Shown: piece by piece, positions 6,263-61,582 of the stretch
Position numbering within the stretch: the stretch's first letter is position 1
Layout: every line of letters starts with the position of its first letter
From: Cherax quadricarinatus
Taxonomy: Eukaryota; Arthropoda; Malacostraca; Decapoda; Parastacidae
Assembly (NCBI RefSeq): GCF_038502225.1
Contig: NC_091292.1
Location: 51,805,992-51,869,991 of the forward strand
Direction: 5' to 3'
DNA length: 64,000 nucleotides
The notes under the pieces: model-generated
The model's database searches: none
What the model saw: only the letters and a program-made list of their open reading frames with translations
Told to the model about the DNA's origin: nothing
Position numbers and translations under genes: made by a program

Positions 6263-6589
6263 AATATATCTTTTCTAAAGAACTAAGTAAAATTACTCTG
6301 GTATAACTTTCCTTGTATTCTGGTAGTGGCATCCTGAAACGGAATCTTATTTACCAACCTGTCGGTATTGTACACCATTTTGATATTCATTCTGTCAGAT
6401 ACTGCAACACAATAGGATCTTGGTACAGGAAAGCTTCTTTAAGTGACAATGGTTGAATCTGAGAGGGACGTGACCTCTCAGCAAATACATTCTTTCTTCT
6501 ACTACTCTACACCTCTCCTTCCTACAGTACATAAGTATCCACACTCTAGCTTGATCTTCACATTGTTTCAAACTATGAAACAGAACTCT
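6263..6589. other. Unassigned sequence
   Basis: About 330 bp between the 5' end of LINE A and a hammerhead-bearing unit. It may be the 5' part of that unit, but I see no coding frame or clear repeat boundary. Confidence 0.4.
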
Positions 6590-6770
6590 TCTCCAGGCTG
6601 AGGGACTGACAACTTCAAATCTACATCTGATTGCATCGTCTTCACATCTCTACTGTTCCTGCCTATTTTCTGTACTCGACTGAAGAAGCCTACTGTGTAG
6701 GCGAAACGTTACGGAATAAAGATGCCTAACTGTTGCCAGTGTCTTACTTACCAAGGTAAACTAAAGTTGT
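6590..6770 (+). mobile_element. Hammerhead-bearing retrozyme-like unit, solo
   Basis: It shares with the other units in this window a tgagggactga block (about 6598), a hammerhead motif at 6671-6721 and the following aataaagat. Its 5' limit is not defined. Confidence 0.6.
6671..6721 (+). ncRNA. Hammerhead ribozyme motif, type I
   Basis: Core CTGAAGA at 6680-6686, a helix II hairpin of six pairs (gcctac/gtaggc) with a tgt loop, GAAA at 6703-6706, then CGTT. Helix I is cga against acg: two pairs plus one A-A mismatch beside the cleavage site. C3 and G8 are standard. The mismatch may reduce activity. Confidence 0.65.
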
Positions 6771-7565: not shown

Positions 7566-7639
7566 TTTGCACGGGCCAGCTATGATTATTCAGTGCTAAT
7601 AATTTTTGTAGATGAATGGTTCAGAGAACCGACATGTTG

Positions 7640-7912
7640 ATAAATTAGACACATGTGCAACTCTTGGGTATCTTTATTGAGGAAACGTTTCGCCACACAG
7701 TGGCTTCATCAGTCCATACAAAGGAGAATCTTGAAGAATAGGAGGAGAATGAGGTAATCAGTCCCTCAACCTTGAGTCGATGTGGTCAGTCCATCAATCT
7801 TGAATAGAATACGGCATACGTGCGGAGAAGGAGCTTATAAACCGTTGGCAGGAGAGGTGAAGCAGTCAGAGGCAGTGTAACACTTATTCAATGTTGAAGT
7901 AGGTCGTGCCCA
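7640..7912 (-). mobile_element. Hammerhead-bearing retrozyme-like unit, truncated
   Basis: Minus-strand unit related to the 378-bp unit of the array at 48788-52016. It shares the agacacatgtgcaa end, hammerhead (7672-7723), gaggtaatcagtccctcaa, gtcagtccatcaatctt, a TATA-like cttataaa and gaagtaggtc. It stops at about 7912, where the 13-bp repeats at the 3' end of the neighbouring LINE begin, which suggests that LINE inserted into it. Confidence 0.75.
7672..7723 (-). ncRNA. Hammerhead ribozyme motif, type I
   Basis: On the minus strand: outer helix I cttt/aaag, inner helix I gga/tcc, core CTGATGA, helix II gccac/gtggc with a tgt loop, then GAAACGTT. All core positions are canonical. Stem III is only A-C/G-T with no loop, so a monomer cannot close it, but the palindromic ACGT could pair between two molecules. 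Confidence 0.82.
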
Positions 7913-16738: not shown

Positions 16739-18623
<1,885 letters not shown>

Positions 18624-25349: not shown

Positions 25350-25745
25350 AATCAGGTTAGGTCACAGGTGTTCTGAAGTTTGGGGCATTTTACAATGTAG
25401 TGGGAGAGGAAGGCATCTACAGAGATGAAGCCAGGACTAAGATTCATATAAGGAAAGTTGTGTATTAGGGAAGGTTCGACCAGACGGCGACTGTTAAAGT
25501 TGGAAGCAAGGAAGACAGTTTTAGCAGAAGACCAGTCAATAGGATGGCTGTGATCTCTGACGTGACAGAAAAAGAGCATTGTTAAGTGTTGGCAAGCCTA
25601 ACACTATTTTTGTGCTCCCTAAGTCTGTCAGAAAGAGATTGGCCAGTTTCTCCAAAGTATGGAAGAGGACAGGAGGAACAAGAAATAGAGTAGACACCAG
25701 GAGCGAAGAGTGTTAGTCTGGCGGAAAGAAAGCTTGATCAGTAGA
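25350..25745 (-). pseudogene. PLE GIY-YIG endonuclease fragment
   Basis: From about 25745 on the minus strand the frame reads APGVYSISCSSCPLPYFGET, then GQSLSDRLREHKNSVRLANT. After a frame change near 25595 it continues CHVRDHSHPIDWSSAKTVFL to LSPGFISVDAFLS. GVYS and YFGETG are the GIY and YIG motifs and align with the domain at 17212-17520. The RT part is missing, so this is a 3' fragment of a second PLE. Confidence 0.72.
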
Positions 25746-25789
25746 GGGAGGAGAGGTATGAATAAGATCAGTGCGAAGAGTGTTAGTCT

Positions 25790-26512
25790 GGCGGAAAGTA
25801 GTGATGTTACACTTGTAGTGATGTTACATTTGTAGTGATGTACTTGTTGTGATGTTACACTTGTAGTGATGTTACATTTGTAGTGATGTACTTGTTGTGA
25901 TGTTACACTTGTAGTGATGTTACACTTGTTGTGATGTTCCACTTGTAGTGATGTTACATTTGTAGTGATGTTACACTTGTAGTGATGTACTTGTTGTGAT
26001 GTTACACTTGTTGTGATGTTACACTTGTTGTGATGTTACACTTGTAGTGATGTTACACTTATAGTGATGTACCTGTTGTGATATTGCACTTATAGTGATG
26101 TTACACTTGTAATGATGTTGCACTTGTTGTGATAAACTTGTAGTGATCTTACACTTGTAGTGATGGTACACTTATAGTGATGTACTTGTTGTGATGTTAC
26201 AATTGTAGTGATGTTACACTTGTAGTGATGTTACATTTGTAGTGATGTACTTGTTGTGATGTTACACTTTTAGTGATGTACTTGTTGTGATGTTACACTT
26301 GTAGTGATTTACTTGCGATGTTACACTTGCAGTGATGTATTTGTGATGTTACACTTGTAATGATGTTGCATTTGTAGTGATTTTACACTTGTAGTGATGT
26401 GCTTGTAGTAATGTTACACTTGTAGTGATGTTACATTTGTAGTGATGTTATACTTGTAGTGAGGTTATACTTGTAGTGAGGTTATACTTGTAGTGAGGTT
26501 ATACCTAAATTC
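25790..26512. repeat. Minisatellite of 13-17 bp units (ttacacttgtagtgatg)
   Basis: About 40 imperfect units built from gttacacttgtagtgat, with shorter variants (gtacttgttgtgat). The array resumes at 27531 on the far side of a CR1 fragment. Confidence 0.88.
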
Positions 26513-38564: not shown

Positions 38565-38770
38565 GTATGATGAGTAAGACACATGTGCAACAGTTGGGTA
38601 CAACAGATGGGTATCTTTATTGCTGAAACGTTTCGCCTACACAGGCTTCCTCAGTCAAATACAAAGACAGCAGGTGTAGTAGTGAAAAGATGGTGATGCA
38701 ATCAGTCTATTAAAGGATAGTACCTCAGCCTGGGAGTCCAGCTCCATGGTCTGGAAATATGTACCAGTAT
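38565..38770 (-). mobile_element. Hammerhead-bearing retrozyme-like unit, divergent
   Basis: Minus-strand unit with the agacacatgtgcaa end, a hammerhead at 38615-38666 and a diverged body. Its core and helix I define a separate subfamily. Confidence 0.65.
38615..38666 (-). ncRNA. Hammerhead ribozyme motif, type I
   Basis: Minus strand: outer cttt/aaag, inner helix I tga/tca (a compensatory variant of gga/tcc), core CTGAGGA, helix II gcct/aggc with a short loop, GAAACGTT. All invariant core bases are present. Confidence 0.8.
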
Positions 38771-42360: not shown

Positions 42361-45300
42361 TGTAGTAGGTTGGTAGACAGCAACCACCCAGGGAAGTACT
42401 ACCGTCCTGCCAGATGACTGTGAAACAGAAACCTGTAACTGTTTTGCATGATGGTAGGATTGCTGGTTTCTTTTTCTGTCTCATAAACACGCTAGATAAC
42501 AGGGATATCTTGCTACTCCTACTTACACTTTGGTCACACTTCACAGACACGCACATGCATATATATATACATACATCTAGGTTTTTCTCCTTTTTCTAAA
42601 TAGCTCTTGTTCTTCTTTATTTCTTCTATTGTCCATGGGGAAGTGGAAAAGAATCTTTCCTCCGTAAGCCATGCGTGTCGTATGAGGCGACTAAAATGCC
42701 GGGAGCAATGGGCTAGTAACCCCTTCTCCTGTAGACACTTACTAAAAAAGAGAAGAAGAAAAACTTTATAAAACTGGGATGCTTAAATGTGCGTGGATGT
42801 AGTGCGGATGACAAGAAACAGATGATTGCTGATGTTATGAATGAAAAGAAGTTGGATGTCCTGGCCCTAAGCGAAACAAAGCTGAAGGGGGTAGGAGAGT
42901 TTCAGTGGGGGGAAATAAATGGGATTAAATCTGGAGTATCTGAGAGAGTTAGAGCAAAGGAAGGGGTAGCAGTAATGTTAAATGATCAGTTATGGAAGGA
43001 GAAAAGAGAATATGAATGTGTAAATTCAAGAATTATGTGGATTAAAGTAAAGGTTGGATGCGAGAAGTGGGTCATAATAAGCGTGTATGCACCTGGAGAA
43101 GAGAGGAATGCAGAGGAGAGAGAGAGATTTTGGGAGATGTTAAGTGAATGTATAGGAGCCTTTGAACCAAGTGAGAGAGTAATTGTGGTAGGGGACCTGA
43201 ATGCTAAAGTAGGAGAAACTTTTAGAGAGGGTGTGGTAGGTAAGTTTGGGGTGCCAGGTGTAAATGATAATGGGAGCCCTTTGATTGAACTTTGTATAGA
43301 AAGGGGTTTAGTTATAGGTAATACATATTTTAAGAAAAAGAGGATAAATAAGTATACAAGATATGATGTAGGGCGAAATGACAGTAGTTTGTTGGATTAT
43401 GTATTGGTAGATAAAAGACTGTTGAGTAGACTTCAGGATGTACATGTTTATAGAGGGGCCACAGATATATCAGATCACTTTCTAGTTGTAGCTACACTGA
43501 GAGTAAAAGGTAGATGGGATACAAGGAGAATAGAAGCATCAGGGAAGAGAGAGGTGAAGGTTTATAAACTAAAAGAGGAGGCAGTTAGGGTAAGATATAA
43601 ACAGCTATTGGAGGATAGATGGGCTAATGAGAGCATAGGCAATGGGGTCGAAGAGGTATGGGGTAGGTTTAAAAATGTAGTGTTAGAGTGTTCAGCAGAA
43701 GTTTGTGGTTACAGGAAAGTGGGTGCGGGAGGGAAGAGGAGCGATTGGTGGAATGATGATGTAAAGAGAGTAGTAAGGGAGAAAAAGTTAGCATATGAGA
43801 AGTTTTTACAAAGTAGAAGTGATGCAAGGAGGGAAGAGTATATGGAGAAAAAGAGAGAGGTTAAGAGAGTGGTGAAGCAATGTAAAAAGAGAGCAAATGA
43901 GAGAGTGGGTGAGATGTTATCAACAAATTTTGTTGAAAATAAGAAAAAGTTTTGGAGTGAGATTAACAAGTTAAGAAAGCCTAGAGAACAAATGGATTTG
44001 TCAGTTAAAAATAGGAGAGGAGAGTTATTAAATGGAGAGTTAGAGGTATTGGGAAGATGGAGGGAATATTTTGAGGAATTGTTAAATGTTGATGAAGATA
44101 GGGAAGCTGTGATTTCGTGTATAGGGCAAGGAGGAATAACATCTTGTAGGAGTGAGGAAGAGCCAGTTGTGAGTGTGGGGGAAGTTCGTGAGGCAGTAGG
44201 TAAAATGAAAGGGGGTAAGGCAGCCGGGATTGATGGGATAAAGATAGAAATGTTAAAAGCAGGTGGGGATATAGTTTTGGAGTGGTTGGTGCAATTATTT
44301 AATAAATGTATGGAAGAGGGTAAGGTACCTAGGGATTGGCAGAGAGCATGCATAGTTCCTTTGTATAAAGGCAAAGGGGATAAAAGAGAGTGCAAAAATT
44401 ATAGGGGGATAAGTCTGCTGAGTATACCTGGTAAAGTGTATGGTAGAGTTATTATTGAAAGAATTAAGAGTAAGACGGAGAATAGGATAGCAGATGAACA
44501 AGGAGGCTTTAGGAAAGGTAGGGGGTGTGTGGACCAGGTGTTTACAGTGAAACATATAAGTGAACAGTATTTAGATAAGGCTAAAGAGGTCTTTGTGGCA
44601 TTTATGGATTTGGAAAAGGCGTATGACAGGGTGGATAGGGGGGCAATGTGGCAGATGTTGCAAGTGTATGGTGTAGGAGGTAGGTTACTGAAAGCAGTGA
44701 AGAGTTTTTACGAGGATAGTGAGGCTCAAGTTAGAGTATGTAGGAAAGAGGGAAATTATTTCCCAGTAAAAGTAGGCCTTAGACAAGGATGTGTGATGTC
44801 ACCGTGGTTGTTTAATATATTTATAGATGGGGTTGTAAGAGAAGTAAATGCGAGGGTCTTGACAAGAGGCGTGGAGTTAAAAGATAAAGAATCACACACA
44901 AAGTGGGAGTTGTCACAGCTGCTCTTTGCTGATGACACTGTGCTCTTGGGAGATTCTGAAGAGAAGTTGCAGAGATTGGTGGATGAATTTGGTAGGGTGT
45001 GCAAAAGAAGAAAATTAAAGGTGAATACAGGAAAGAGTAAGGTTATGAGGATAACAAAAAGATTAGGTGATGAAAGATTGAATATCAGATTGGAGGGAGA
45101 GAGTATGGAGGAGGTGAATGTATTCAGATATTTGGGAGTGGACGTGTCAGCGGATGGGTCTATGAAAGATGAGGTGAATCATAGAATTGATGAGGGAAAA
45201 AGAGTGAGTGGTGCACTTAGGAGTCTGTGGAGACAAAGAACTTTGTCCTTGGAGGCAAAGAGGGGAATGTATGAGAGTATAGTTTTACCAACGCTCTTAT

Positions 45301-45957
45301 ATGGGTGTGAAGCATGGGTGATGAATGTTGCAGCGAGGAGAAGGCTGGAGGCAGTGGAGATGTCATGTCTGAGGGCAATGTGTGGTGTGAATATAATGCA
45401 GAGAATTCGTAGTTTGGAAGTTAGGAGGAGGTGCGGGATTACCAAAACTGTTGTCCAGAGGGCTGAGGAAGGGTTGTTGAGGTGGTTCGGACATGTAGAG
45501 AGAATGGAGCGAAACAGAATGACTTCAAGAGTGTATCAGTCTGTAGTGGAAGGAAGGCGGGGTAGGGGTCGGCCTAGGAAAGGTTGGAGAGAGGGGGTAA
45601 AGGAGGTTTTGTGTGCGAGGGGCTTGGACTTCCAGCAGGTATGCATGAGCGTGTTTGATAGGAGTGAATGGAGACAAATGGTTTTTAATACTTGACGTGC
45701 TGTTGGAGTGTGAGCAAAGTAACATTTATGAAGGGGTTCAGGGAAACCGGCAGGCCGGACTTGAGTCCTGGAGATGGGAAGTACAGTGCCTGCACTCTGA
45801 AGGAGGGGTGTTAATGTTGCAGTTTAAAAACTGTAGTGTAAAGCACCCTTCTGGCAAGACAGTGATGGAGTGACTGATGGTGAAAGTTTTTCTTTTTCGG
45901 GCCACCCTGCCTTGGTGGGAATCGGCCAGTGTGATAATAAAAAAAAAAAAAATGTTA
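42361..45957 (+). mobile_element. RTE-like non-LTR retrotransposon, copy D, full length
   Basis: The most complete copy: 5' UTR from tgtagtaggttggtagacag, ORF 42789-45695, and a 3' UTR ending gccaccctgccttggtgg, then aataaaaaaaaaaaaaa. No clear target-site duplication is visible by eye. Copies A and C belong to the same subfamily. Confidence 0.92.
42789..45695 (+). CDS. LINE D endonuclease/reverse transcriptase, intact ORF
   Basis: 968 codons. Endonuclease blocks: SETKLKG (about residue 33), GDLNAKVGE (134) and SDHFLVVATL (226). RT blocks: GKAAGIDGI (476), RECKNYRGISLLS, QGGFRKGRGCVDQ, FMDLEKAYDRVDR, GLRQGCVMSP (662) and FADDTVLLG (713). C-terminal: WFGHVERM and RGRGRPRKGW (about 923). All catalytic residues seen are intact. 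The frame opens with GTG (42789). In-frame codons run back to TAG at 42732-42734 without an ATG, and they encode a Lys-rich stretch plus LGCLNVRGC, the first endonuclease strand. A true start is therefore unclear. Confidence 0.9.
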   Translation: MRGCSADDKKQMIADVMNEKKLDVLALSETKLKGVGEFQWGEINGIKSGVSERVRAKEGVAVMLNDQLWKEKREYECVNSRIMWIKVKVGCEKWVIISVYAPGEERNAEERERFWEMLSECIGAFEPSERVIVVGDLNAKVGETFREGVVGKFGVPGVNDNGSPLIELCIERGLVIGNTYFKKKRINKYTRYDVGRNDSSLLDYVLVDKRLLSRLQDVHVYRGATDISDHFLVVATLRVKGRWDTRRIEASGKREVKVYKLKEEAVRVRYKQLLEDRWANESIGNGVEEVWGRFKNVVLECSAEVCGYRKVGAGGKRSDWWNDDVKRVVREKKLAYEKFLQSRSDARREEYMEKKREVKRVVKQCKKRANERVGEMLSTNFVENKKKFWSEINKLRKPREQMDLSVKNRRGELLNGELEVLGRWREYFEELLNVDEDREAVISCIGQGGITSCRSEEEPVVSVGEVREAVGKMKGGKAAGIDGIKIEMLKAGGDIVLEWLVQLFNKCMEEGKVPRDWQRACIVPLYKGKGDKRECKNYRGISLLSIPGKVYGRVIIERIKSKTENRIADEQGGFRKGRGCVDQVFTVKHISEQYLDKAKEVFVAFMDLEKAYDRVDRGAMWQMLQVYGVGGRLLKAVKSFYEDSEAQVRVCRKEGNYFPVKVGLRQGCVMSPWLFNIFIDGVVREVNARVLTRGVELKDKESHTKWELSQLLFADDTVLLGDSEEKLQRLVDEFGRVCKRRKLKVNTGKSKVMRITKRLGDERLNIRLEGESMEEVNVFRYLGVDVSADGSMKDEVNHRIDEGKRVSGALRSLWRQRTLSLEAKRGMYESIVLPTLLYGCEAWVMNVAARRRLEAVEMSCLRAMCGVNIMQRIRSLEVRRRCGITKTVVQRAEEGLLRWFGHVERMERNRMTSRVYQSVVEGRRGRGRPRKGWREGVKEVLCARGLDFQQVCMSVFDRSEWRQMVFNT

Positions 45958-46911: not shown

Positions 46912-46986
46912 ATGAGAGTAAGACACATGTGCAACATCTGGGTATCTTTATAAGTTGTGTACGAATGGTATATAATACCGACAAGA
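46912..46986 (-). mobile_element. Retrozyme-like unit, hammerhead deleted
   Basis: Partial unit with gatgagagtaagacacatgt, gggtatctttat and then a jump to gttgtgtacgaatggta. The hammerhead and the body are missing. It sits directly in front of the next unit. Confidence 0.65.
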
Positions 46987-47019
46987 TGAGAGTAAGACAC
47001 ATGTGCAACATCTGGGTAT

Positions 47020-47066
47020 CTTTATTGTAGACGTTTCGCCATCCAGTGGCTTTATCAATACAAATT
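47020..47066 (-). ncRNA. Hammerhead motif with U3-A8 core
   Basis: Minus strand: inner helix I gta/tac, core TTGATAA (C3 to U and G8 to A), helix II gccac plus its complement gtggc-like (gccatc side ggatggc), GAAACGTC with C17 at the predicted cleavage site. Core changes at 3 and 8 keep the 3-8 pair. Confidence 0.65.
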
Positions 47067-47282
47067 CCAGGACATAACTTGAAGACAGTAGAACTATGTA
47101 CAGAAGATGAGGTAATCAGTCCCTCAACCTAGGAGTAGGTGCGAACAGCACCTACTCCTAGGATTCTTTCTTCTGCTTCAGAATCTCCACGACTATGGTG
47201 CTGTTCGCACCTACTCCTAGGTTGAGGGACTGATTACCTCATCTTCTGTACATAGTTCTACTGTCTTCAAGTTATGTCCTGG

Positions 47283-47329
47283 AATTTGTATTGATAAAGC
47301 CACTGGATGGCGAAACGTCTACAATAAAG
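47283..47329 (+). ncRNA. Hammerhead motif with U3-A8 core
   Basis: Mirror copy in the right arm of the inverted repeat: TTGATAA at 47291-47297, helix II gccac(tgg)atggc, GAAACGTC, then tac pairing with gta. Confidence 0.65.
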
Positions 47330-47404
47330 ATACCCAGATGTTGCACATGTGTCTTACTCTCAAGTGTTTCCTGACGTGGGTCTGAGTCATATGATGACCC
47401 GTTG

Positions 47405-48410: not shown

Positions 48411-48787
48411 TGACTGAAGATTGAGACACTTATGCAGCATATGGGAATCTTTATTCAGGAAACGTTTCGCCACACAGTGGCTTCATCAGTCCAATACAAA
48501 GAGGAAGGCGAAAGGAGAGGAGGAGAATGAGGTAATCAGTCCCTCAACCTGGAGTCGATGTGTTCAGTCCATCAATCTTGTAGATTGTATAGCATAGGGC
48601 CGTAGACGTGGCTTATATACTGTAGTAAGGTGACGTGAAGCAGGTGGAGGCGGGGTCATAGTGGTACCATCCACTAGTCGAAGTAGGTCTTCGTCCAAAG
48701 GTTGAACAAGTGCTGAAGAATTCTTTGTAACAAGATCCCATGATGCTGCAGTGTCTGACAGTTGTGATGAATGGTTTGAAAAACCGT
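48411..48787 (-). mobile_element. Retrozyme-like unit, inverted relative to the array
   Basis: A nearly full unit on the minus strand of the family that makes up the plus-strand array. It meets the array head to head at 48787/48788 (gaaaaaccg, then tatataagcc). It differs from array units at a few positions (acagtt/acaact, ctgcag/cggcag). Confidence 0.85.
48449..48501 (-). ncRNA. Hammerhead ribozyme motif, type I
   Basis: Minus strand: outer cttt/aaag, inner gga/tcc, core CTGATGA, helix II gccac/gtggc with a tgt loop, GAAACGTT. Identical to the array motif. Confidence 0.85.
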
Positions 48788-51700
48788 ATATAAGCCACGT
48801 CTACGGCCCTATGCTGTACATTCTACAAGATTGATGGACTGAACACATCGACTCCAGGTTGAGGGACTGATTACCTCATTCTCCTCCTCTCCTTACGCCT
48901 TCCTCTTTGTATTGGACTGATGAAGCCACTGTGTGGCGAAACGTTTCCTGAATAAAGATTCCCATATGCTGCATAAGTGTCTCAATCTTCAACTTGTCGG
49001 TTTTTCAAACCATTCATCACAACTGTCAGACACGGCAGCATCGTGGGGTCTTGTTACAAAGAATTCTTCAGCACTTGTTCAACCTTTGGACGAAGACCTA
49101 CTTCGACTAGTGGATGGTACCACTATGACCCCGCCTCCATCTGCTTCACGTCACCTCACTACAGTATATAAGCCACGTCTACGGCCCTATGCTGTACATT
49201 CTACAAGATTGATGGACTGAACACATCGACTCCAGGTTGAGGGACTGATTACCTCATTCTCCTCCTCTCCTTACGCCTTCCTCTTTGTATTGGACTGATG
49301 AAGCCACTGTGTGGCGAAACGTTTCCTGAATAAAGATTCCCATATGCTGCATAAGTGTCTCAATCTTCAACTTGTCGGTTTTTCAAACCATTCATCACAA
49401 CTGTCAGACACGGCAGCATCATGGGGTCTTGTTACAAAGAATTCTTCAACACTTGTTCAACCTTTGGACGAAGACCTACTTCGACTAGTGGATGGTACCA
49501 CTATGACCCCGCCTCCATCTGCTTCACGTCACCTCACTACAGTATATAAGCCACGTCTACGGCCCTATGCTGTACATTCTACAAGATTGATGGACTGAAC
49601 ACATCGACTCCAGGTTGAGGGACTGATTACCTCATTCTCCTCCTCTCCTTACGCCTTCCTCTTTGTATTGGACTGATGAAGCCACTGTGTGGCGAAACGT
49701 TTCCTGAATAAAGATTCCCATATGCTGCATAAGTGTCTCAATCTTCAACTTGTCGGTTTTTCAAACCATTCATCACAACTGTCAGACACGGCAGCATCAT
49801 GGGGTCTTGTTACAAAGAATTCTTCAGCACTTGTTCAACCTTTGGACGAAGACCTACTTCGACTAGTGGATGGTACCACTATGACCCCGCCTCCATCTGC
49901 TTCACGTCACCTCACTACAGTATATAAGCCACGTCTACGGCCCTATGCTGTACATTCTACAAGATTGATGGACTGAACACATCGACTCCAGGTTGAGGGA
50001 CTGATTACCTCATTCTCCTCCTCTCCTTACGCCTTCCTCTTTGTATTGGACTGATGAAGCCACTGTGTGGCGAAACGTTTCCTGAATAAAGATTCCCATA
50101 TGCTGCATAAGTGTCTCAATCTTCAACTTGTCGGTTTTTCAAACCATTCATCACAACTGTCAGACACGGCAGCATCATGGGGTCTTGTTACAAAGAATTC
50201 TTCAGCACTTGTTCAACCTTTGGACGAAGACCTACTTCGACTAGTGGATGGTACCACTATGACCCCGCCTCCATCTGCTTCACGTCACCTCACTACAGTA
50301 TATAAGCCACGTCTACGGCCCTATGCTGTACATTCTACAAGATTGATGGACTGAACACATCGACTCCAGGTTGAGGGACTGATTACCTCATTCTCCTCCT
50401 CTCCTTACGCCTTCCTCTTTGTATTGGACTGATGAAGCCACTGTGTGGCGAAACGTTTCCTGAATAAAGATTCCCATATGCTGCATAAGTGTCTCAATCT
50501 TCAACTTGTCGGTTTTTCAAACCATTCATCACAACTCTCAGACACGGCAGCATCATGGGGTCTTGTTACAAAGAATTCTTCAACACTTGTTCAACCTTTG
50601 GACGAAGACCTACTTCGACTAGTGGATGGTACCACTATGACCCCGCCTCCATCTGCTTCACGTCACCTCACTACAGTATATAAGCCACGTCTACGGCCCT
50701 ATGCTGTACATTCTACAAGATTGATGGACTGAACACATCGACTCCAGGTTGAGGGACTGATTACCTCATTCTCCTCCTCTCCTTACGCCTTCCTCTTTGT
50801 ATTGGACTGATGAAGCCACTGTGTGGCGAAACGTTTCCTGAATAAAGATTCCCATATGCTGCATAAGTGTCTCAATCTTCAACTTGTCGGTTTTTCAAAC
50901 CATTCATCACAACTGTCAGACACGGCAGCATCATGGGGTCTTGTTACAAAGAATTCTTCAGCACTTGTTCAACCTTTGGACGAAGACCTACTTCGACTAG
51001 TGGATGGTACCACTATGACCCCGCCTCCATCTGCTTCACGTCACCTCACTACAGTATATAAGCCACGTCTACGGCCCTATGCTGTACATTCTACAAGATT
51101 GATGGACTGAACACATCGACTCCAGGTTGAGGGACTGATTACCTCATTCTCCTCCTCTCCTTACGCCTTCCTCTTTGTATTGGACTGATGAAGCCACTGT
51201 GTGGCGAAACGTTTCCTGAATAAAGATTCCCATATGCTGCATAAGTGTCTCAATCTTCAACTTGTCGGTTTTTCAAACCATTCATCACAACTGTCAGACA
51301 CGGCAGCATCGTGGGGTCTTGTTACAAAGAATTCTTCAGCACTTGTTCAACCTTTGGACGAAGACCTACTTCGACTAGTGGATGGTACCACTATGACCCC
51401 GCCTCCATCTGCTTCACGTCACCTCACTACAGTATATAAGCCACGTCTACGGCCCTATGCTGTACATTCTACAAGATTGATGGACTGAACACATCGACTC
51501 CAGGTTGAGGGACTGATTACCTCATTCTCCTCCTCTCCTTACGCCTTCCTCTTTGTATTGGACTGATGAAGCCACTGTGTGGCGAAACGTTTCCTGAATA
51601 AAGATTCCCATATGCTGCATAAGTGTCTCAATCTTCAACTTGTCGGTTTTTCAAACCATTCATCACAACTGTCAGACACGGCAGCATCATGGGGTCTTGT

Positions 51701-52016
51701 TACAAAGAATTCTTCAGCACTTGTTCAACCTTTGGACGAAGACCTACTTCGACTAGTGGATGGTACCACTATGACCCCGCCTCCATCTGCTTCACGTCAC
51801 CTCACTACAGTACATAAGCCACGTCTACGGCCCTATGCTGTACATTCTACAAGATTGATGGACTGAACACATCGACTCCAGGTTGAGGGACTGATTACCT
51901 CATTCTCCTCCTCTCCTTACGCCTTCCTCTTTGTATTGGACTGATGAAGCCACTGTGTGGCGAAACGTTTCCTGAATAAAGATTCCCATATGCTGCATAA
52001 GTGTCTCAATCTTCAA
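48788..52016 (+). mobile_element. Tandem array of 378-bp hammerhead units (candidate retrozyme)
   Basis: Nine hammerhead motifs spaced exactly 378 bp apart, with eight full unit intervals and a partial unit at each end. Unit order: hammerhead, aataaagattcccatatgc, cttgtcggttttt, cagacacggcagcatc, gacgaagacctacttcgac (a perfect short hairpin), a TATA-like tatataag, gttgagggactgattacctc, next hammerhead. Units are almost identical (gtgggg/atgggg, cagcac/caacac and tatata/tacata differences). There is no long ORF: the 95-codon frame in each unit is too short and unlike known proteins. The array ends at 52016, inside a CR1 ORF2 on the other strand. Confidence 0.88.
48905..51981 (+). ncRNA. Nine hammerhead ribozymes, 378-bp period
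   Basis: Motifs of 53 bp start at 48905, 49283, 49661, 50039, 50417, 50795, 51173, 51551 and 51929. Fold: outer helix I cttt/aaag, internal loop gtatt/tgaat, inner helix I gga/tcc, core CTGATGA, helix II gccac/gtggc (tgt loop), GAAA, and ACGT as a minimal stem III. Predicted cleavage follows U17, between 48945 and 48946 in the first copy and every 378 bp after it. All nine are identical by eye. Cleavage of a multi-unit transcript would release 378-nt monomers. Confidence 0.85.
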
Positions 52017-53491
52017 TTGCTTCAGTCTTTCTATCTGCTTCACAACCATTTCACTAGTGACTGTGATGTTACATAATTTATCTTCATCTAGCCCACTATA
52101 AAAATTAATTACTGGAATATTGTTAGTGTCTTCCTGTGTAAAAACCGAGAGAAAATAATTATTTAAAATCGAGCACATTTCATTCTCTTTGTCAGTAAGA
52201 TGCCCATAGTTATTTTTAAGGAGACCTATCTTATCTCTAACTTTTGATCTATAGACCTGGAAAAAACTCTTTGGGTTAGTTTTAGAATCCCTAGCAACTT
52301 CAATTTCATAGTCCCTTTTTGCTTTTCTTATCCCCTTTTTAATGTCCCTCTTAATGTCAACATAGTGATTCATAAGATGACCCTCACCTCTTTTGATACG
52401 CCTATAAATTCCTTTCTTATGCCCTAGTAGATATTTCAGCCTATTATTCATCCATTTTGGGTCATTTCTATTTGATCTAAATTCTCTATATGGGATAAAC
52501 GTTCTTTGAGCAGCATGTATTGTGTTCAGAAAACTGTCATATTGATAGCTCTCATCGTTACCCCAGTCAACAGATGATAAGTGTTCTCTAAGCCCATCGT
52601 AATCTGCTAAGCGAAAATCTGGGACTGTTACTGAGTTATCGCTACTATCGTACTTCCATTCAATGCTAAATGTAATTGATTTGTGGTCGCTAGCACCCAG
52701 TTCCTCTGAAATTTCTAAATTATTAACACGGGATTCATTGTTTGCCAGAACTAAGTCAAGCGGGTTATTTCCCCTTGTAGGTTCTGTCACAAACTGCTTC
52801 AAAAAACAATCCTGAACTACTTCTATGAAGTCATATGATTCTAAATTCCCAGTCAAGAAATTCCAATCAATATGACTAAAGTTAAAGTCTCCTAGAATTA
52901 CTACATTATCGTGCCTTGTGGCCTTAAGAATTTCCTCCCATTGTAGTCTCCCTTGGTCCCTATCTAAGTTTGGGGGACGGTATATCACTCTTAAAATCAG
53001 TTTTTCATGCCCCTCTGAAAATTCTATCCAAACAGACTCTGTATGTGTTACTTTAGACTTAATACCCGTTTTTATGCAACAGTTCAAGCGATCTCGGACA
53101 TACAATGCCACCCCACCCCCCTTCTGATACTTCTATCTACTTGGAACAATTTAAAACCCTGAATGTGACATTCCGCAGGCATGTCCCGACTTTTTGAATT
53201 AAACCACGTCTCAGTTAAGGCAAATACATCAATGTTACCTGCACTTGCGACTAATCTCAACTCGTCCATCTTATTCCTAGCACTACGGCTATTAGCATAA
53301 TAAACATTGAAAGACTCTCCTTTCTCTTTACCCTTCCTGCTCATTTCTGTTTTTCTACTAAACCTATTACTGTCCTTATCACCCAATGTCACTGGCTTTT
53401 CAATATCTACCTCGTTCTGCTTATTACTAGTTCCTTTAGAACTCATAATATTACTACACTGGGACTTCACTGTTTTCCTGCCAAAACCCAT
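52017..53491 (-). pseudogene. CR1-like ORF2 endonuclease and linker, one frameshift, truncated
   Basis: 53491-53115 gives FNVYYANSRSARNKMDELRL, VFALTETWFNSKSRD and FQVDRSIRRG. A frameshift in a C-rich run at about 53111-53125 leads to 53111-52017: VALYVRDRLNC, LILRVIYRPPNLDR, VVILGDFNFSHIDW, DLVLANNESRV and GASDHKSITFSI, then the linker (DPKWMNNRLKYLLGHKKGIY, FFQVYRSKVRDKIGLL) to VVKQIERLKQLK, where the array starts. The APE active-site residues (TETW, GDFN, SDH) are present. RT is missing. Confidence 0.85.
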
Positions 53492-54053: not shown

Positions 54054-54471
54054 GATGAAATTAAGACACATGTGCAACATCTGGGTATCTTTATTGTAGA
54101 CGTTTCGCCATCCAGTGGCTTTATCAATAGAAATTCTAGGACATAACTTGAAGACAGTAGAACTATGTACAGAAGATGAGGTAATCAGTCCCTCAACCTA
54201 GGAGTAGGTGCGAAGAGCACCATAGTCGTGGAGATTGTGAAGCAGAAGAAAGGAGCCTGGCGCTTATATAATAACGTCAGGTGTAGCAGACGAAGGCATA
54301 GTCACTGGTAGGCGGGATTCCCCAGTGGAAGTAGGTCCTTCCCAAAGAGATGGGTTAGTAGTAGTAGTAGTTGTCGTAGCCGTGAAGGTTATGTACATGT
54401 CCTCAGAATCAAGATTCCATGATGTTGCAGTGTCTGACAAGTTGTGTAAGAATGGTATATAATACCGACAA
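54054..54471 (-). mobile_element. Retrozyme-like unit, 418 bp, U3-A8 subfamily
   Basis: One full minus-strand unit, bounded by gatgaaattaagacacat at 54054 and again at 54472. It contains a hammerhead motif at 54089-54135, the gaggtaatcagtccctcaac block, a TATA-like cttatataataac, gaagtaggtcc, a short tagtagtagtag run and gtcagacactgcaac (reversed). It is related to the inverted repeat at 46987-47362. Confidence 0.82.
54089..54135 (-). ncRNA. Hammerhead motif with U3-A8 core
   Basis: Minus strand: core TTGATAA, helix II gccac/atggc type, GAAACGTC, then tac. Upstream bases read ttctattgat, so the helix I partner is cta-like or shifted by one relative to the gta of 47283; the outer cttt is also lost. 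Activity is doubtful. Confidence 0.5.
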
Positions 54472-54701
54472 GATGAAATTAAGACACATGTGCAACATCT
54501 GGGTATCTTTATTGTAGACGTTTCGCCATCTTCTGTACATAGTTCTACTGTCTTCAAGTTATGTCCTAGAATTTGTATTGATAAAGCCACTGGATGGCGA
54601 ACGTCTACAATAAAGATACCCAGATGTTGCACATGTGTCTTAATTTCATCATTTCGGTATTATATACCATTCTTACACAACTTGTCAGACACTGCAACAG
54701 T
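54472..54701. mobile_element. Two partial retrozyme-like units in inverted orientation
   Basis: 54472-54529 is the start of a minus unit, broken inside helix II (gccat, then cttctgtacat). 54530-54701 is a plus-strand partial unit. Arms 54473-54529 and about 54594-54651 are inverted copies. Confidence 0.75.
54572..54615 (+). ncRNA. Hammerhead-like motif, one core A missing
   Basis: TTGATAA at 54578-54584, helix II, then GAACGTC where the family has GAAACGTC. Loss of one core adenosine should abolish cleavage. Confidence 0.55.
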
Positions 54702-54784
54702 GCATCACTGAAAGTTTCAGGGCCTGCAGCACCCAGTACCTTCGTCCATCTCCTGCACTCGAAGTTAAGTAAACAGTGACTTGA
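54702..54784. other. Short spacer
   Basis: Unassigned; no feature. Confidence 0.35.
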
Positions 54785-54975
54785 AGAATTGAGACACTTA
54801 TGCAACACATGGGAATCTTTATTGAAGAAACGTTTCGCCACACAGTGGCTTCATCAGTCCAATATAAAGTAGAATTGGGTAAGGAGAGGAGAAGTTTGAG
54901 GTAATCAGTCCCTCAATCTGGAATCGATGTGTTCAGTCCATCATTCTTGTAGGAAGTGCAGCATAGGAACGAACG
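54785..54975 (-). mobile_element. Retrozyme-like unit, truncated
   Basis: Minus-strand unit of the 378-bp family (gagacacttatgcaacacat, hammerhead, gaggtaatcagtccctcaa, gtgttcagtccatcattctt), cut near a short (aacg)n run at 54967-54983. Confidence 0.75.
54817..54869 (-). ncRNA. Hammerhead ribozyme motif, type I
   Basis: Core CTGATGA, helix II gccac/gtggc, GAAACGTT. Inner helix I is gga/tct with a G-U pair; the outer cttt/aaag is kept. Confidence 0.78.
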
Positions 54976-55029
54976 AACGAACGAAAGTTCAGGTAAGATC
55001 CCAAATGGGATGAGCGGGGAAGATGGGAC

Positions 55030-55265
55030 AGACGAAGAATAGTGGAAATATAAACACATATGCAGTATAATGTGATCCTTTATTGACAACGTTTCACCCA
55101 CACAGTGGGCTTTTTCAAGTCATAAACAGATCTACCTGGGGTGGAAGGTACGGGAGTATTTATAGTCATGTTCAGAATGTTGAGGTCAGGTGGAGAATGC
55201 TGCATCTGATGATCTACTGGGTGGGGTTATAGAGTCTTGGATAGCTTGGCAGGGGTATTGGACAA
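55030..55265 (-). mobile_element. Retrozyme-like unit, divergent subfamily
   Basis: Minus strand, hammerhead at 55078-55127 with a diverged body. It lies immediately upstream of the ORF1 at 55440. Confidence 0.6.
55078..55127 (-). ncRNA. Hammerhead motif with U3-A8 core
   Basis: Minus strand: inner helix I gac/gtc (perfect), core TTGAAAA (U3, A8), helix II gcccac/gtgggt with a tgt loop, GAAACGTT. Confidence 0.7.
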
Positions 55266-57059: not shown

Positions 57060-57310
57060 GAACTGACCGGAACTGTGCTTGAAAGAATAGTGAAATTCCA
57101 AACGCTTATATGCTGCAACAGTGAAGAATCAATTCTCCTTCAGGAGCCAGAGAAGGGTCATCTCAAGATTAAGACCCGTGCCAGGACCCTGGTCTTGGCG
57201 AACATTATACATATACATATACTGTTTGTATCGGCTTGACAAAGCTCCTGGGGAGCGAAACGTTGCCACAATAAAATGTCACATTAGTACTGCATTTCCA
57301 TTGTGTGTCC
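57060..57310 (+). mobile_element. Retrozyme-like unit, divergent subfamily
   Basis: Plus strand, hammerhead at 57224-57276 followed by aataaaatgtcac. It has little body similarity to the 378-bp unit. Confidence 0.55.
57224..57276 (+). ncRNA. Hammerhead motif with U3-A8 core
   Basis: Core TTGACAA at 57236-57242 (U3, A8), helix II gctcc/ggagc, GAAACGTT, inner helix I ggc/gcc (perfect). The tttgtat upstream and acaataaa downstream match the conserved loop and outer-helix region of the other motifs. Confidence 0.7.
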
Positions 57311-57670: not shown

Positions 57671-58488
57671 TCATTTCGGTTGGGAGGTTGGGGTGGTGTA
57701 GAAGGTTAGAGACCCATTAAAGGTTTGGCTTAGGTAACGGTTACCTGTGGTTTCTTCGTCGGTTACTTCTTCGACTACTACTTCGTCGTTGTCCGAGGGT
57801 TGGTCATAATGTTCCGGTTCTATTTCGTCTTCTGTGACTGTGTTGAGAGGAAGCAGGGAGTGTTGGTCGGTTGTGGTTTGTTGGGCTGGTGGTGGGTGGT
57901 GAAAGGTGGCAGTGGACGGTGGTGTTGGTTCTGGAGTAGAGTCTTGGTCAGAGATACGAGTAGGACCAGGGGTTGAGGTGAAGTTAACAATGTCTGGAAT
58001 TAGCTTGAGGAGGTCTTGTGATGATGGCGAGTCTGGAAAGTTGAAGTTTGGCATGTTGTTAAGGCGAAACAGTTCATCGATTGTTGTGTTGAATGAGCCA
58101 GGGTTTGCAGCATTAGTGAGTGTGCATACATCATACAGTATAGCATCTTGGATGGAGCAGCATCAGGAAGAGTAGAGAGGGACTGACTGGGAGATGATTG
58201 TTGTGTAGCTTGAAGGAGTTCAGTGGTATCTAATTGAATTTTTGCAATGGCGGCGTATGTTGGCGATTTAGGGTTGTTCTTCTTGGTTTCTTCAATGATT
58301 TTCTTAGACAGGACATCTTTACGTAAAGGGCATTTTGCTGCAAGGGTGTGGCGAGTACCCTTGCAGTTGAGGCAGGTAGGAGAGGTAGTGGTAGTAGAAC
58401 ATTCCTTGAAGTCATGGCCGTCTTTACCGCAGTTTGTGCAGTACTTCTTCCCTTTCAGAGGACAGTCAGGCGTTGAGTGGTGATAGGA
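57671..58488 (-). pseudogene. LINE ORF1 C-terminal half with zinc knuckles, N terminus replaced
   Basis: From 58488 the minus frame reads SYHHSTPDCPLKGKKYC, TNCGKDGHDFKEC and TCLNCKGTRHTLAAKCPL, then SPTYAAIAKIQLDTTELLQA. After a frame change near 58150 it continues VCTLTNAANPGSFNTTIDEL, FNFPDSPSSQDLLKLIPDIV and a Thr/Pro/acidic tail ending at 57671. It parallels the ORF1 at 47786-48382 (STPDCPLKGKKYC against TTNDCPTKDKKFC). Upstream of the first knuckle the sequence becomes the 33-bp minisatellite. Confidence 0.7.
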
Positions 58489-60305
58489 AGTAGTAGTGGT
58501 AGAGGTAAGACTGGTAGTGGAAGTAGTAGTGGTAGAGGTAAGACTGGTAGTGGAAGTAGCAGTGGTAGAGGTAAGACTGGTAGTGGAAGTAGTAGTGGTA
58601 GAGGTAAGACTGGTAGTGTAAGTAGTAGTGGTAGAGGTAAGACTGGTAGTGGAAGTAGCAGTGGTAGAGGTAAGACTGGTAGTGGAAGTAGTAGTGGTAG
58701 AGGTAAGACTGGTAGTGGAAGTAGTAGTGGTAGAGGTAAGACTGGTAGTGGAAGTAGCAGTGGTAGAGGTAAGACTGGTAGTGGAAGTAGTAGTGGTAGA
58801 GGTAAGACTGGTAGTGTAAGTAGTAGTGGTAGAGGTAAGACTGGTAGTGGAAGTAGCAGTGGTAGAGGTAAGACTGGTAGTGGAAGTAGTAGTGGTAGAA
58901 TTAAGACTGGTAGTGGAAGTAGTAGTGGTAGAAGTAAGACTGGTAGTGGAAGTAGTAGTGGTAGAAGTAAGACTGGTAGTGGAAGTAGTAGTGGTAGAAG
59001 TAAGACTGGTAGTGGAAGTAGTAGTGGTAGAAGTAAGACTGGTAGTGGAAGTAGTAGTGGTAGAAGTAAGACTGGTAGTGGAAGTAGTAGTGGTAGAAGT
59101 AAGACTGGTAGTGGAAGTAGTAGTGGTAGAAGTAAGACTGGTAGTGGAAGTAGTAGTGGTAGAGGTAAGACTGGTAGTGGAAGTAGCAGTGGTAGAAGTA
59201 AGACTGGTAGTGGAAGTAGTAGTGGTAGAAGTAAGACTGGTAGTGGAAGTAGTAGTGGTAGAAGTAAGACTGGTAGTGGAAGTAGTAGTGGTAGAAGTAA
59301 GACTGGTAGTGGAAGTAGTAGTGGTAGAAGTAAGACTGGTAGTGGAAGTTGTAGTGGTAGAAGTAAGACTGGTAGTGGAAGTAGTAGTGGTAGAAGTAAG
59401 ACTGGTAGTGGAAGTAGTAGTGGTAGAAGTAAGACTGGTAGTGGAAGTAGTAGTGGTAGAAGTAAGACTGGTAGTGGAAGTAGTAGTGGTAGAAGTAAGA
59501 CTGGTAGTGGAAGTAGTAGTGGTAGAAGTAAGACTGGTAGTGGAAGTAGTAGTGGTAGAAGTAAGACTGGTAGTGGAAGTAGTAGTGGTAGAAGTAAGAC
59601 TGGTAGTGGAAGTAGTAGTGGTAGAAGTAAGACTGGTAGTGGAAGTAGTAGTGGTAGAAGTAAGACTGGTAGTGGAAGTAGTAGTGGTAGAGGTAAGACT
59701 GGTAGTGGAAGTAGTAGTGGTAGAGGTAAGACTGGTAGTGGAAGTAGTAGTGGTAGAAGTAAGACTGGTAGTGTAAGTAGTAGTGGTAGAGGTAAGACTG
59801 GTAGTGTAAGTAGTAGTGGTAGAGGTAAGACTGGTAGTGGAAGTAGTAGTGGTAGAGGTAAGACTGGTAGTGGAAGTAGTAGTGGTAGAGGTAAGACTGG
59901 TAGTGTAAGTAGTAGTGGTAGAGGTAAGACTGGTAGTGGAAGTAGTAGTGGTAGAGGTAAGACTGGTAGTGGAAGTAGTAGTGGTAGAGGTAAGACTGGT
60001 AGTGGAAGTAGTAGTGGTAGAGGTAAGACTGGTAGTGGAAGTAGCAGTGGTAGAGGTAAGACTGGTAGTGTAAGTAGTAGTGGTAGAAGTAAGACTGGTA
60101 GTGGAAGTAGTAGTGGTAGAGGTAAGACTGGTAGTGGAAGTAGTAGTGGTAGAGGTAAGACTGGTAGTGGAAGTAGTAGTGGTAGAGGTAAGACTGGTAG
60201 TGGAAGTAGTAGTGGTAGAGGTAAGACTGGTAGTGGAAGTAGCAGTGGTAGAGGTAAGACTGGTAGTGTAAGTAGTAGTGGTAGAGGTAAGACTGGTAGT
60301 GGAGG
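58486..60305. repeat. 33-bp minisatellite, about 55 units
   Basis: Nearly perfect 33-bp units (agtagtggtagaggtaagac core) with a gaggt/aaagt-type variant in the central third. Since 33 is a multiple of three, plus frames (SSSGRGKTGSG, about 610 codons) and minus frames (SYLYHYYFHYQ) stay open. These are not genes: they have no unique N or C terminus. Confidence 0.92.
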
Positions 60306-61435
60306 GTAAGACTGGTGGTGAGTGGTAGTGTAGAGTGGGAGACTGGTGAGGTGGAGTAGTGGCGGTGGAGATGGACTGGTAGTGAAGTAGTGGTGTGAGA
60401 CTGGTGGTAGATGGCAGGTGGAGTAGACATGGTGGTGAAGTAGACTGGTGGAGGTGGAGTGGTAGTGGTGAGGTGGACTGGTGGTGGAAGTAGTGGTGGT
60501 GGGAGTGGACTGGTAGTGGAGGTGGTAGGGGTAAGACTGGTAGGTGGAAGTAGTGGTGGTGGAGGAGGTAAGGACTGGTAGGTGGAGTAGTGGTGGTGGA
60601 GGTGAAGACTGGTGGTGGAGTAGTGAGGTGGTGGGGATGGACTGGTGTGGAGTAGTAGTGGTAGAGGTAAGGACTGGTGGTGGAGTAGTAGTGGTGAGTG
60701 ACTGGTAGTGGAAGTAGGGTGGTGAAGTAGGACTGGTAGTGGAGTAGTGGTGGTAGAGGGGTGAGACTGGTGAGTGGAGTAGTGGTGGTGGGAGGTAGGA
60801 CTGGTGGGAGGTGGTAGTAGTGGTGGTGGGGTAAGACTGGTGAGTGGAGTAGTGGTGGTGAGGGTGGAATGGTGGATGGACTAGTGGTGGTGGGGTGACT
60901 GGTGGAGTAGTGGTGGTGGTGGAGTGGACTGGTAGGTGGGGAGTGTAGTGGTGGAATGGACTGGTGTGGAGTGATAGTGTAGTGGTGGAAAGTAAGGACT
61001 GGTGGATGGAGTGTGGTGGTAGAGTGGGAGGACTAGGTAGTGGAAGTGGGGAGGACGGTGGTGGAGAGGGGTAAGACTGGTAGTGTAAGTGTAGGTAGTG
61101 GTAGAGGTGGGAAGTGGACTGGTGAGTGGAGTAGTAGGTGGTGAGTAAGACTGGTGGTGGAGTAGTAGGTGGTGAGGGGTAAGACTGGTAGTGGAGTAGT
61201 AGGTGGTGGGGTGACTGGTAGTGGAGTAGTGTGGTGGAGGTAAGACTGGTAGGTGGAGTAGCGGTGGTGGGATAAGACTAGGTGGTCTGGTGTAGGTAGT
61301 GGAAGTAGTAGTGGTAGAGGTAAGACTGGTAGTGGAAGTAGTAGTGGTAGAGGTAAGACTGGTAGTGGAAGTAGTAGTGGTAGAGGTAAGACTGGTAGTG
61401 GAAGTAGTAGTGGTAGAGGTAAGGCTAATAGTGGA
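60306..61435. repeat. Indel-rich continuation of the minisatellite, then clean units
   Basis: 60306-61290 uses the same vocabulary as the array but with frequent one- or two-base gains and losses, so the 33-bp period is lost. 61295-61435 returns to clean units. An abrupt change of this kind is more typical of unpolished long-read consensus than of natural decay. Confidence 0.7.
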
Positions 61436-61582
61436 AGAAGTAGTGAATTAGTGGTAGTTTAGACTCCTATACCAACCACCTCTTTTCTAGAAAATTTGAG
61501 AGGGTATGATTTAATGCTTATTGAGTAAAGTGTTTGACCTTATCTTATATTTGACTCTACACCTACATCCTTCTTCCGGCAG

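What the first reader, a model, noticed from the sequence alone, without database searches (positions are those of the whole stretch)
48788..52016. 378-bp tandem array with one hammerhead ribozyme per unit: a candidate animal retrozyme
Nine identical hammerhead motifs recur at exactly 378-bp intervals in a non-coding tandem repeat. Each unit also has a TATA-like tatataag about 150 bp before the ribozyme and a perfect short hairpin (gaagacctacttc region). Known metazoan retrozymes are short tandem non-autonomous elements whose transcripts self-cleave at hammerheads and circularise. Unit size, ribozyme type and neighbouring Penelope-like elements all fit. That the array makes 378-nt circular RNA is inference.
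Basis: partly seen in the sequence, partly recalled or inferred. Interest (0 to 1): 0.88.

Follow-up and report, generated by a model that had tools for sequence, protein, structure and literature searches.

The report
Ribozyme-bearing Penelope-type tandem repeat
A short 378-base repeat that carries a minimal hammerhead ribozyme and exists in many thousands of copies in this animal's genome has spread by the copying route of Penelope retrotransposons, and the insertion scars that were sampled suggest that the RNA copied into DNA had usually not been cut by the ribozyme first.

Summary
In detail: nine identical hammerhead cores at exact 378-bp spacing. Rfam finds no hammerhead, but the inner stem I and the C3-G8 core pair covary over nine representatives of about seven families (36 of 36 cells; 0 of 20,000 shuffles). 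It is the minimal, helix-III-less type known from Penelope-like elements (PLEs), not the canonical type of metazoan retrozymes. The 31-mer core occurs 46,664 times in the genome. Sampled copies, all from contig C1, show the PLE insertion signature: arms joined head to head (26 of 26 opposite-strand neighbours), target duplications peaking at 12 bp (26 of 29 inserts), and a ~31-nt tail extension on exactly one outer end (26 of 29, my reading). The two arms share a haplotype (22 inserts). cDNA 5' ends pile up 20-50 nt past the TATA box (21 of 62), with no clear peak at the cleavage site. Best reading: a PLE derivative without the PLE ORF, retrozyme-like, copied mostly from uncleaved linear RNA by double-ended target-primed reverse transcription. 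Circular RNA, cleavage and the partner PLE remain untested. The window's own array lacks a target duplication.

The parts
48786..52016 (+). Direct tandem array, 8.5 copies of a 378-bp unit; first copy starts at the TATA box, last ends at the tail end (reverse-transcription start site 1)
48415..48786 (-). Inverted near full-length monomer (element positions 7-378) joined head to head to the array; 7 differences from the direct units
48905..48957 (+). Minimal type I hammerhead of unit 1 (stem I CUUU/AAAG and GGA/UCC, stem II GCCAC/GUGGC, no helix III loop); the same at +378 x 1 to 8; predicted cut 48945|48946
49283..49335 (+). Hammerhead of unit 2
49661..49713 (+). Hammerhead of unit 3
50039..50091 (+). 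Hammerhead of unit 4
50417..50469 (+). Hammerhead of unit 5
50795..50847 (+). Hammerhead of unit 6
51173..51225 (+). Hammerhead of unit 7
51551..51603 (+). Hammerhead of unit 8
51929..51981 (+). Hammerhead of unit 9
48787..48794 (+). TATATAAG, candidate promoter; repeated each 378 bp (TACATAAG in the ninth unit); cDNA 5' ends of sampled genomic copies pile up about 20-50 nt downstream of its start
48971..48991 (+). Tail GCATAAGTGTCTCAATCTTCA; its end is the usual 3' end of inserted copies (reverse-transcription start site 1)
48999..49011 (+). Covarying hairpin GGTTTTTCAAACC directly after the tail, inside the ~31-nt extension seen on one end of most sampled inserts; in eight units, each 378 bp
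49022..49023 (+). Approximate reverse-transcription start site 2 (end of the ~31-nt one-sided extension)
46915..47360 (.). Second, diverged family (U3-A8 hammerhead) in the same head-to-head arrangement
7606..7842 (-). Subfamily B copy with hammerhead and tail extension
6355..6744 (+). Diverged relative (CTGAAGA core) with head hairpin and tail
38601..38707 (-). Diverged relative (CTGAGGA core, stem I TGA/TCA)
54056..55128 (.). Cluster of relatives, including U3-A8 cores
57222..57295 (+). Relative with TTGACAA core (U3-A8), stem I GGC/GCC, stem II GCUCC/GGAGC
17212..18620 (-). Broken Penelope-like ORF fragment, upper end approximate (RVT_1 match below Pfam's cut-off; C-terminal part related to proteins some of which carry GIY-YIG); a possible family of the partner enzyme, not shown to be the partner

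Best explanation
The array is a non-autonomous derivative of a Penelope-like element (PLE) that lacks the PLE ORF. Each 378-bp unit holds the cis-parts of a PLE terminal repeat: TATA box, minimal hammerhead, tail, and a hairpin just beyond it. RNA starts about 20-50 nt past the TATA box and can run through one or more units (inferred from cDNA 5' ends). PLE reverse transcriptase supplied in trans (inferred) starts internally at two sites about 31 nt apart, on either side of the hairpin. The target is cut with a stagger of about 12 bp. One DNA end primes at site 1 and the other at site 2, on RNA of the same haplotype, and the two cDNAs are joined head to head (footprints shown in sampled genomic copies; order of events inferred). 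Templates with several units give tandem arrays; later unequal exchange probably enlarges them (inferred). The hammerhead has covarying structure, so it was selected; it has no closed helix III and probably works as a dimer or with protein (from the literature). Its product is not the main template of insertion.
For: Head to head: 26 -+ against 0 +- neighbours within 1 kb among the first 100 listed 31-mer sites; 25 against 2 among the first 100 listed tail sites. Target duplications of 7 bp or more in 26 of 29 inserts, 9 bp or more in 22 of 29; flanks of different loci reach 7 in 2.8% and 9 in 0.3% of 1,116 pairings (one of the 26, L073, is a simple ATAT run). Exactly one end with the tail extension in 26 of 29 (my reading; both ends in L082, none in L059 and the window). 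Arms of one insert differ by 0.9-1.6% on average against 3.8-5.2% between inserts, 0 of 5,000 re-pairings as low (22 inserts). 5' ends: 21 of 62 at element 195-225 against 5.6 expected if uniform, TATA at 174. Of 52 tails sampled without requiring the core, 36 extend upstream past the whole core. Three inner pairs of stem I plus C3-G8 form in 36 of 36 cells over 9 representatives; C3-G8 98, U3-A8 12, mixed 0 in a pattern that allowed mixed. Published PLE features: inverted pLTR, 9-10 bp duplications, 31-bp optional tail, TATA (PMC3846280, passages); RT starts at two internal sites whose interval is the tail, both target strands cut and extended, hammerhead mutants still inserted (PMC11167929, passages). 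PLE coding pieces are plentiful in this genome (58,196 first-look candidates, of which 147 were scored, giving 152 matches).
Against: No autonomous PLE with this unit's terminal repeat was found; 120 PLE homologues gave no match to the unit at E <= 0.001. The window's own insert has no target duplication and no tail extension, its two arms are different haplotypes, and its direct arm starts at the TATA box, upstream of the inferred start, so it is probably rearranged. Some cDNAs end at element 6-9 (the hairpin base), which a promoter start does not explain. Of the 52 tails, 16 stop inside or past the core (positions 307-356), some only because of indels; arms at 335, 337 and 338 (L091 twice, L110) lie 3-6 nt past the cut, and L105 at 336 I judged by eye to be an indel, so a minority of cleaved templates is not excluded. 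No RNA was examined.
Confidence: 0.78

Rival explanations
1. A metazoan retrozyme in the strict sense: tandem transcripts self-cleave at each hammerhead, the 378-nt monomers are circularised, and circles are reverse transcribed into new tandem arrays.
For: Unit size, tandem structure and ribozyme in each unit fit. Units within one array are nearly identical while arrays differ (L057: three units identical to each other, 12 differences from the window), as rolling-circle copying would give. A few unit-length arms end close to the start site, and a few arms end close to the cut (L091, L110). PMC7229834 reports such circles in coral, mussel and axolotl (parts 1-2 of 6 and passages read).
Against: The hammerhead lacks helix III and is of the PLE type that PMC7229834 sets apart. 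Many cDNA 5' ends lie upstream of intact hammerheads near a promoter start; 0 of 62 at 332-340 (a sample that required the core); of 52 tails chosen without that requirement none ends at 333, three at 335-338 (one of them, L105, judged an indel), and 36 run past the whole core. The window array mixes variants in non-adjacent units, which one monomeric circle would not give. No RNA tested.
Confidence: 0.15
2. A plain satellite DNA spread by unequal exchange; the ribozyme-like core is a relic of an old PLE.
For: Large arrays exist, e.g. C1:24,560,458 to at least 24,572,930 with mixed 378 and 375/376-bp spacing, as unequal exchange would leave.
Against: Dispersed single and few-unit inserts with target duplications and one-sided tails; covarying stem I and core pair over diverged families.
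Confidence: 0.05
3. Terminal repeats left behind by autonomous PLEs (solo pLTRs), not an element with its own propagation.
For: PLE copies are organised in tandem or partial tandem with pLTRs (PMC11167929, passages); the same hammerhead type lies near PLE ORF pieces (L031, L032, L046).
Against: Two subfamilies (378 and 371 bp) have complete units with head and tail and no PLE ORF, and multi-unit inserts with duplications (L053, L058, L063, L076); the unit itself is what multiplies. A non-autonomous pLTR element and a solo pLTR are hard to tell apart when only one unit is present.
Confidence: 0.2

Closest known systems
Penelope-like elements (Penelope/Poseidon type), pLTR with minimal hammerhead; PAc of Anolis (PMC11167929, passages) and Adineta vaga Penelope (PMC3846280, passages; no ribozyme is mentioned there)
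   Same: Head-to-head inverted terminal repeats, one optional ~31-nt tail, target duplications near 10 bp, TATA box, minimal hammerhead (PAc), two internal RT start sites beside a stem-loop (PAc)
   Different: No PLE ORF in the unit; multi-unit arrays of the terminal repeat alone; duplications peak at 12 bp; start sites 46 and about 77 nt past the cut (in PAc the stem-loop site is 111-118 nt into an ORF whose cut is at 26)
Metazoan (non-LTR) retrozymes (PMC7229834, parts 1-2 and passages; PMC7761336, passages)
   Same: Short tandem repeat of 150-450 bp with one type I hammerhead per unit and low GC (45.8% here; the paper says below 50% in the text and below 45% in a legend), dimers to long arrays, dependence on another element's enzyme
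   Different: Hammerhead minimal, without helix III; a TATA box with cDNA ends to match, whereas PMC7761336 says retrozymes seem to lack promoters; circles not shown
Small PLE-associated hammerhead variants that cleave as dimers (Lunse, Weinberg and Breaker 2017; title only, seen in reference lists of PMC7761336, PMC11014351 and PMC10085705; the paper is not held)
   Same: Minimal hammerhead tied to Penelope; palindromic ACGU in place of helix III, which would allow a double hammerhead
   Different: Their consensus could not be compared, so whether the extra A before stem II is part of it is unknown
Natural U3-A8 hammerheads (Perreault et al. 2011, PMC3088659, passages)
   Same: C3-G8 replaced by U3-A8, reported there as natural covariation, active in vitro
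   Different: Here four U3-A8 families lie in one genome beside C3-G8 families, in PLE-type repeats

Membership tests
Metazoan retrozyme | Tandem units of 150-450 bp with one type I hammerhead each | tested here: met
Metazoan retrozyme | Canonical type I hammerhead with closed helix III and loop I-II contacts | tested here: not met
   Helix III reduced to palindromic ACGU with no loop; no Rfam hammerhead match; loop contacts not tested
Metazoan retrozyme | Unit-length circular and linear RNA in tissues | not testable with these tools
   no RNA data
Metazoan retrozyme | Target-site duplications where present | tested here: met
   26 of 29 sampled inserts, not the window's own
Penelope-like element (non-autonomous) | Head-to-head inverted terminal repeats | tested here: met
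Penelope-like element (non-autonomous) | Optional 30-40 nt tail on one inverted end | tested here: met
   26 of 29 with exactly one (read); absent in the window insert
Penelope-like element (non-autonomous) | Minimal hammerhead in the terminal repeat | tested here: met
   the association is known from PMC6155905 and PMC7761336 (passages)
Penelope-like element (non-autonomous) | RT plus GIY-YIG ORF (autonomous members) | tested here: not met
   No PLE protein match to the unit, longest open frame 98 codons; this excludes an autonomous PLE only
Penelope-like element (non-autonomous) | Shared terminal sequence with an autonomous PLE of the same genome | tested here: inconclusive
   Hammerhead copies lie next to PLE fragments in L031, L032, L046, but no intact partner was found in 20 PLE loci
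Hammerhead ribozyme | C3-G8 pair, stems I and II, GAAA, U16.1-H17 | tested here: met
   (GAAACGT or a one-A-shorter form and the A before stem II were required by the pattern, so their constancy is not evidence)
Hammerhead ribozyme | Self-cleavage | not testable with these tools
   needs transcription assay

The most novel reading that the evidence does not exclude
The hammerhead is kept as an RNA-RNA dimerisation device: two template RNAs from one locus pair through the palindromic ACGU into a double hammerhead, so that both ends of a staggered target break are primed on sister RNAs, one at each start site. This would explain the palindrome without helix III, the head-to-head inserts with one tail each, and why the two arms share a haplotype although they end at different points. 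Cleavage would then be a late or side reaction.
Probability: 0.12. Interest if true: 0.85.

Novelty: new variant of a known kind. Interest (0 to 1): 0.58.

Why it matters
PMC7229834 and PMC7761336 (parts and passages read) propose PLEs as likely movers of hammerhead tandem repeats and call the role of the minimal PLE hammerhead unknown. This genome offers tens of thousands of copies of a hammerhead-bearing repeat without the PLE ORF, and the sampled ones carry the full PLE insertion signature. They allow statistical reading of the mechanism (two start sites, one per target strand; same-haplotype double priming; 5' ends near a promoter start more than at the ribozyme cut), so both open questions become testable on a large scale.

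Tried and rejected
Rfam models: no hammerhead at gathering score on the window, at E <= 1 on 4 kb or at E <= 10 on 131 bases; uninformative, because the minimal form lacks helix III. IMG/VR scan for the core: nothing. Whole-genome DNA search with the unit: nothing, because common words are skipped; pattern searches replaced it. I first noted that the cut 26 nt after the ATG inside CTGATGA matches PAc exactly; I dropped this, since in PAc C3 and G8 precede the start codon, so the two ATGs are not equivalent, and here that frame stops after 11 codons. The MAFFT alignment of the nine representatives misaligned stem I, so pairs were counted by script; the single-copy core variants of L082 and L084 were not among the nine, and L082's has a broken stem II pair. 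Pair 4 of stem I forms in only 5 of 9. Single-sequence folding prefers a non-hammerhead fold (-16.3 against -11.4 kcal/mol; z -0.88), which argues against strong monomer activity. The pile-up of 5' ends at 291-310 sits at the limit of the sampling condition, so no weight is put on it; several ends at 292-293, and L103 and L107 at 356, look like alignment breaks, not ends. Ends listed at el 1-4 for L062, L071, L076 and L064 continue into a previous unit. Own-genome searches for Rfam RF00163 and for three core variants (TTGANAA, CTGANAA, TTGANGA contexts) did not complete.
Full report
What is there. The window (64 kb) lies at C1:51,805,992-51,869,991 of a 3.95-Gb genome of 7,334 contigs, unnamed here. 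It is eukaryotic and rich in retrotransposons; the only named one of 120 listed homologues of a PLE protein of this genome is from a mantis shrimp, which suggests but does not prove a crustacean. The array at 48786-52016 has 8.5 units of 378 bp, pairwise differences 0-3 among the eight full units. Each unit has one copy of the core; exact matches number 12 in the window and none in 100 shuffles. To the left, head to head, lies an inverted near full-length monomer (48415-48786). The array's right end appears to interrupt an ORF for a non-LTR endonuclease on the minus strand (51900-53132) at the tail end. The unit's longest open frame is 98 codons (84 from ATG) and 62 in subfamily B.

Is the ribozyme real? 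Rfam models do not match. But the window and the fetched loci hold several diverged families with the same layout. With a pattern that left stem I free and allowed C or U at 3 and G or A at 8, 110 copies were found in the window and L031-L085: 98 C3-G8, 12 U3-A8, no mixed. Most of the 98 lie in loci chosen for the C3-G8 31-mer, so the weight lies on the unselected families. In nine representatives, of about seven families, the three inner pairs of stem I and the 3-8 pair form in 36 of 36 cells, with 2 to 4 pair types at each; random re-pairing reached at most 34 in 20,000 trials. The fourth pair of stem I forms in 5 of 9, and stem II pairs 1-4 in 34 of 36 cells (all). PMC3088659 (passages) reports natural U3-A8 hammerheads, active in vitro. 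Helix III is only the palindrome ACGU, the minimal form that PMC6155905 and PMC7761336 (passages) describe for PLEs, and which may act as dimers. The copies have an extra A before stem II; the pattern required it, but the looser pattern, which did not, found no copy of the repeat without it in the window.

How many, and how arranged? The 31-mer occurs 46,664 times (23,410 + 23,254), its reversed control 0. The A-subfamily tail occurs 20,673 times and the tail-to-head junction 11,434 times; the latter count includes one-sided tail extensions, so it is not a count of tandem junctions. Among the first 100 listed core sites, neighbours within 1 kb are 26 head to head, 0 tail to tail, 11 same strand; among the first 100 tail sites 25, 2 and 20. 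Spacing of 378 recurs at unlinked loci, and one array runs from C1:24,560,458 to at least 24,572,930. All listed sites are on the first part of contig C1, so the sample is not random over the genome.

Insertion signature. Of 35 small loci fetched (L051-L085), 28 with readable ends plus the window were tested for duplications; L056, L057, L066, L077, L078, L080 and L081 were left out because ends were outside the stretch, nested or unclear. Ends were set by me, with 8 bases of play. 26 of 29 have a direct repeat of 7 bp or more at both ends (one, L073, is an ATAT run), 17 of 29 have 12 bp or more; mismatched flanks reach 7 bp in 2.8% and never 10 in 1,116 trials. L055, L082 and the window have none. 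In 26 of the same 29, exactly one outer end runs on past the tail, by 26-47 aligned nt, mostly 30-36 (my reading). This is the picture published for Penelope: inverted pLTR, 9-10 bp duplications, an optional 31-bp tail at one end (PMC3846280, passages), the tail being the interval between two RT start sites (PMC11167929, passages). The extension contains a hairpin, GGTTTTTCAAACC in A and GGTTCTCTGAACC, GGTATTTTATACC and GGTATTATATACC in relatives, which covaries; one further copy has a mismatch.

What served as template? In 22 head-to-head inserts (of the 28; L054, L059, L064, L072, L083 and L085 were not used) the two arms differ by 1.6% (A) and 0.9% (B) on average, against 5.2% and 3.8% between inserts; none of 5,000 re-pairings is as low. 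In L069 the arms are identical over 288 bases although they differ by about 6-7% from the B reference. The arms end at different points and carry different outer ends, so they look like separate copies of RNA of one haplotype rather than a fold-back of one cDNA; later conversion between arms is not excluded. Of 62 5' ends, 21 fall at element 195-225, with the TATA box at 174. In a second sample, 40 stretches around tails listed and chosen without requiring the core, 52 exact tails were walked: 36 extend upstream past the whole core, 16 stop at 307-356, none at 333, the first base after the cut. Arms at 335 and 337 (L091) and 338 (L110) lie close to it; L105 at 336 looks like an indel. Arms with a promoter-side start can hold more than one unit (one arm each of L053 and L063). 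So most inserted RNAs were probably uncleaved linear transcripts, a minority of cleaved ones not excluded. PMC11167929 found in vitro that hammerhead mutants still insert and that cleavage needs the protein. The evidence does not say that the ribozyme never acts.

Array growth. L057 has three units with no difference among them and 12 from the window; L063 and L076 share variants between inverted and direct units. The window array mixes variants in non-adjacent units. This fits copying of multi-unit RNA and later unequal exchange; rolling-circle copying of circles would explain the first two but not the last.

The window's own insert. It has no duplication and no tail extension, and its inverted arm differs by 7 bases from the direct units, some shared with other loci. 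It is probably two events or a rearranged one.

What is missing. The unit has no match to 120 PLE homologues. PLE fragments lie in the window at 17.2-18.6 kb and between 25.0 and 26.0 kb; the genome has very many PLE pieces. No intact PLE with this terminal repeat was seen in the 20 PLE loci read. The partner is therefore inferred. No RNA data were available.

Verdict. Observation confirmed; interpretation partly supported. It works like a retrozyme in being a hammerhead-bearing parasite repeat without enzymes of its own; by signature it belongs with PLEs as a derivative without their ORF. In print: of 10 allowed paper searches 8 were used; I saw no listed title or abstract on such a PLE-type hammerhead array in a crustacean, but two key papers (MBE 2014, RNA Biol 2017) are not held, so I do not claim that it is unpublished.

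Noticed in passing
window 46915-47360, 54056-55128, 57222-57295; L034, L057, L069: Natural U3-A8 hammerhead cores in four families of one genome, beside C3-G8 families, with matching stem I; no mixed pair seen in 110 copies
   Followed up: partly
window 25000-25999 (-): A second Penelope-like fragment, matched by about 100 of 120 PLE homologues
   Followed up: no
L053, 1044-1409: A subfamily B monomer inserted singly, in one orientation, inside an A array, with a short stretch of the A sequence repeated on both sides: one family jumping into another's array
   Followed up: no
C1:24,560,458 to at least 24,572,930 of the own genome: Very long head-to-head array with stretches of 378-bp and of 375/376-bp spacing
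   Followed up: no
L053, L060, L063, L069, window 48786: Several cDNA arms end at element 1-9, at or just before the 5' base of the hairpin after the tail; not explained by a promoter start
   Followed up: partly
plus strand of the subfamily A unit, from inside the hammerhead across the tail-head junction: A 98-codon open frame crosses the tail-head junction of A; in B the related frame is 62 codons and shares LSDTA.SW; coding was not tested
   Followed up: no
window 58000-61445: A 33-bp minisatellite of about 55 copies read through by a long minus-strand frame that ends in a zinc-knuckle-like segment
   Followed up: no
window 1-2782: 51-bp satellite of 54 copies at the window edge
   Followed up: no
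window 3016-5976, 13304-16306, 42735-45695: Three open non-LTR retrotransposon frames of 986-1000 aa (Pfam run on the first only), suggesting recent activity
   Followed up: no
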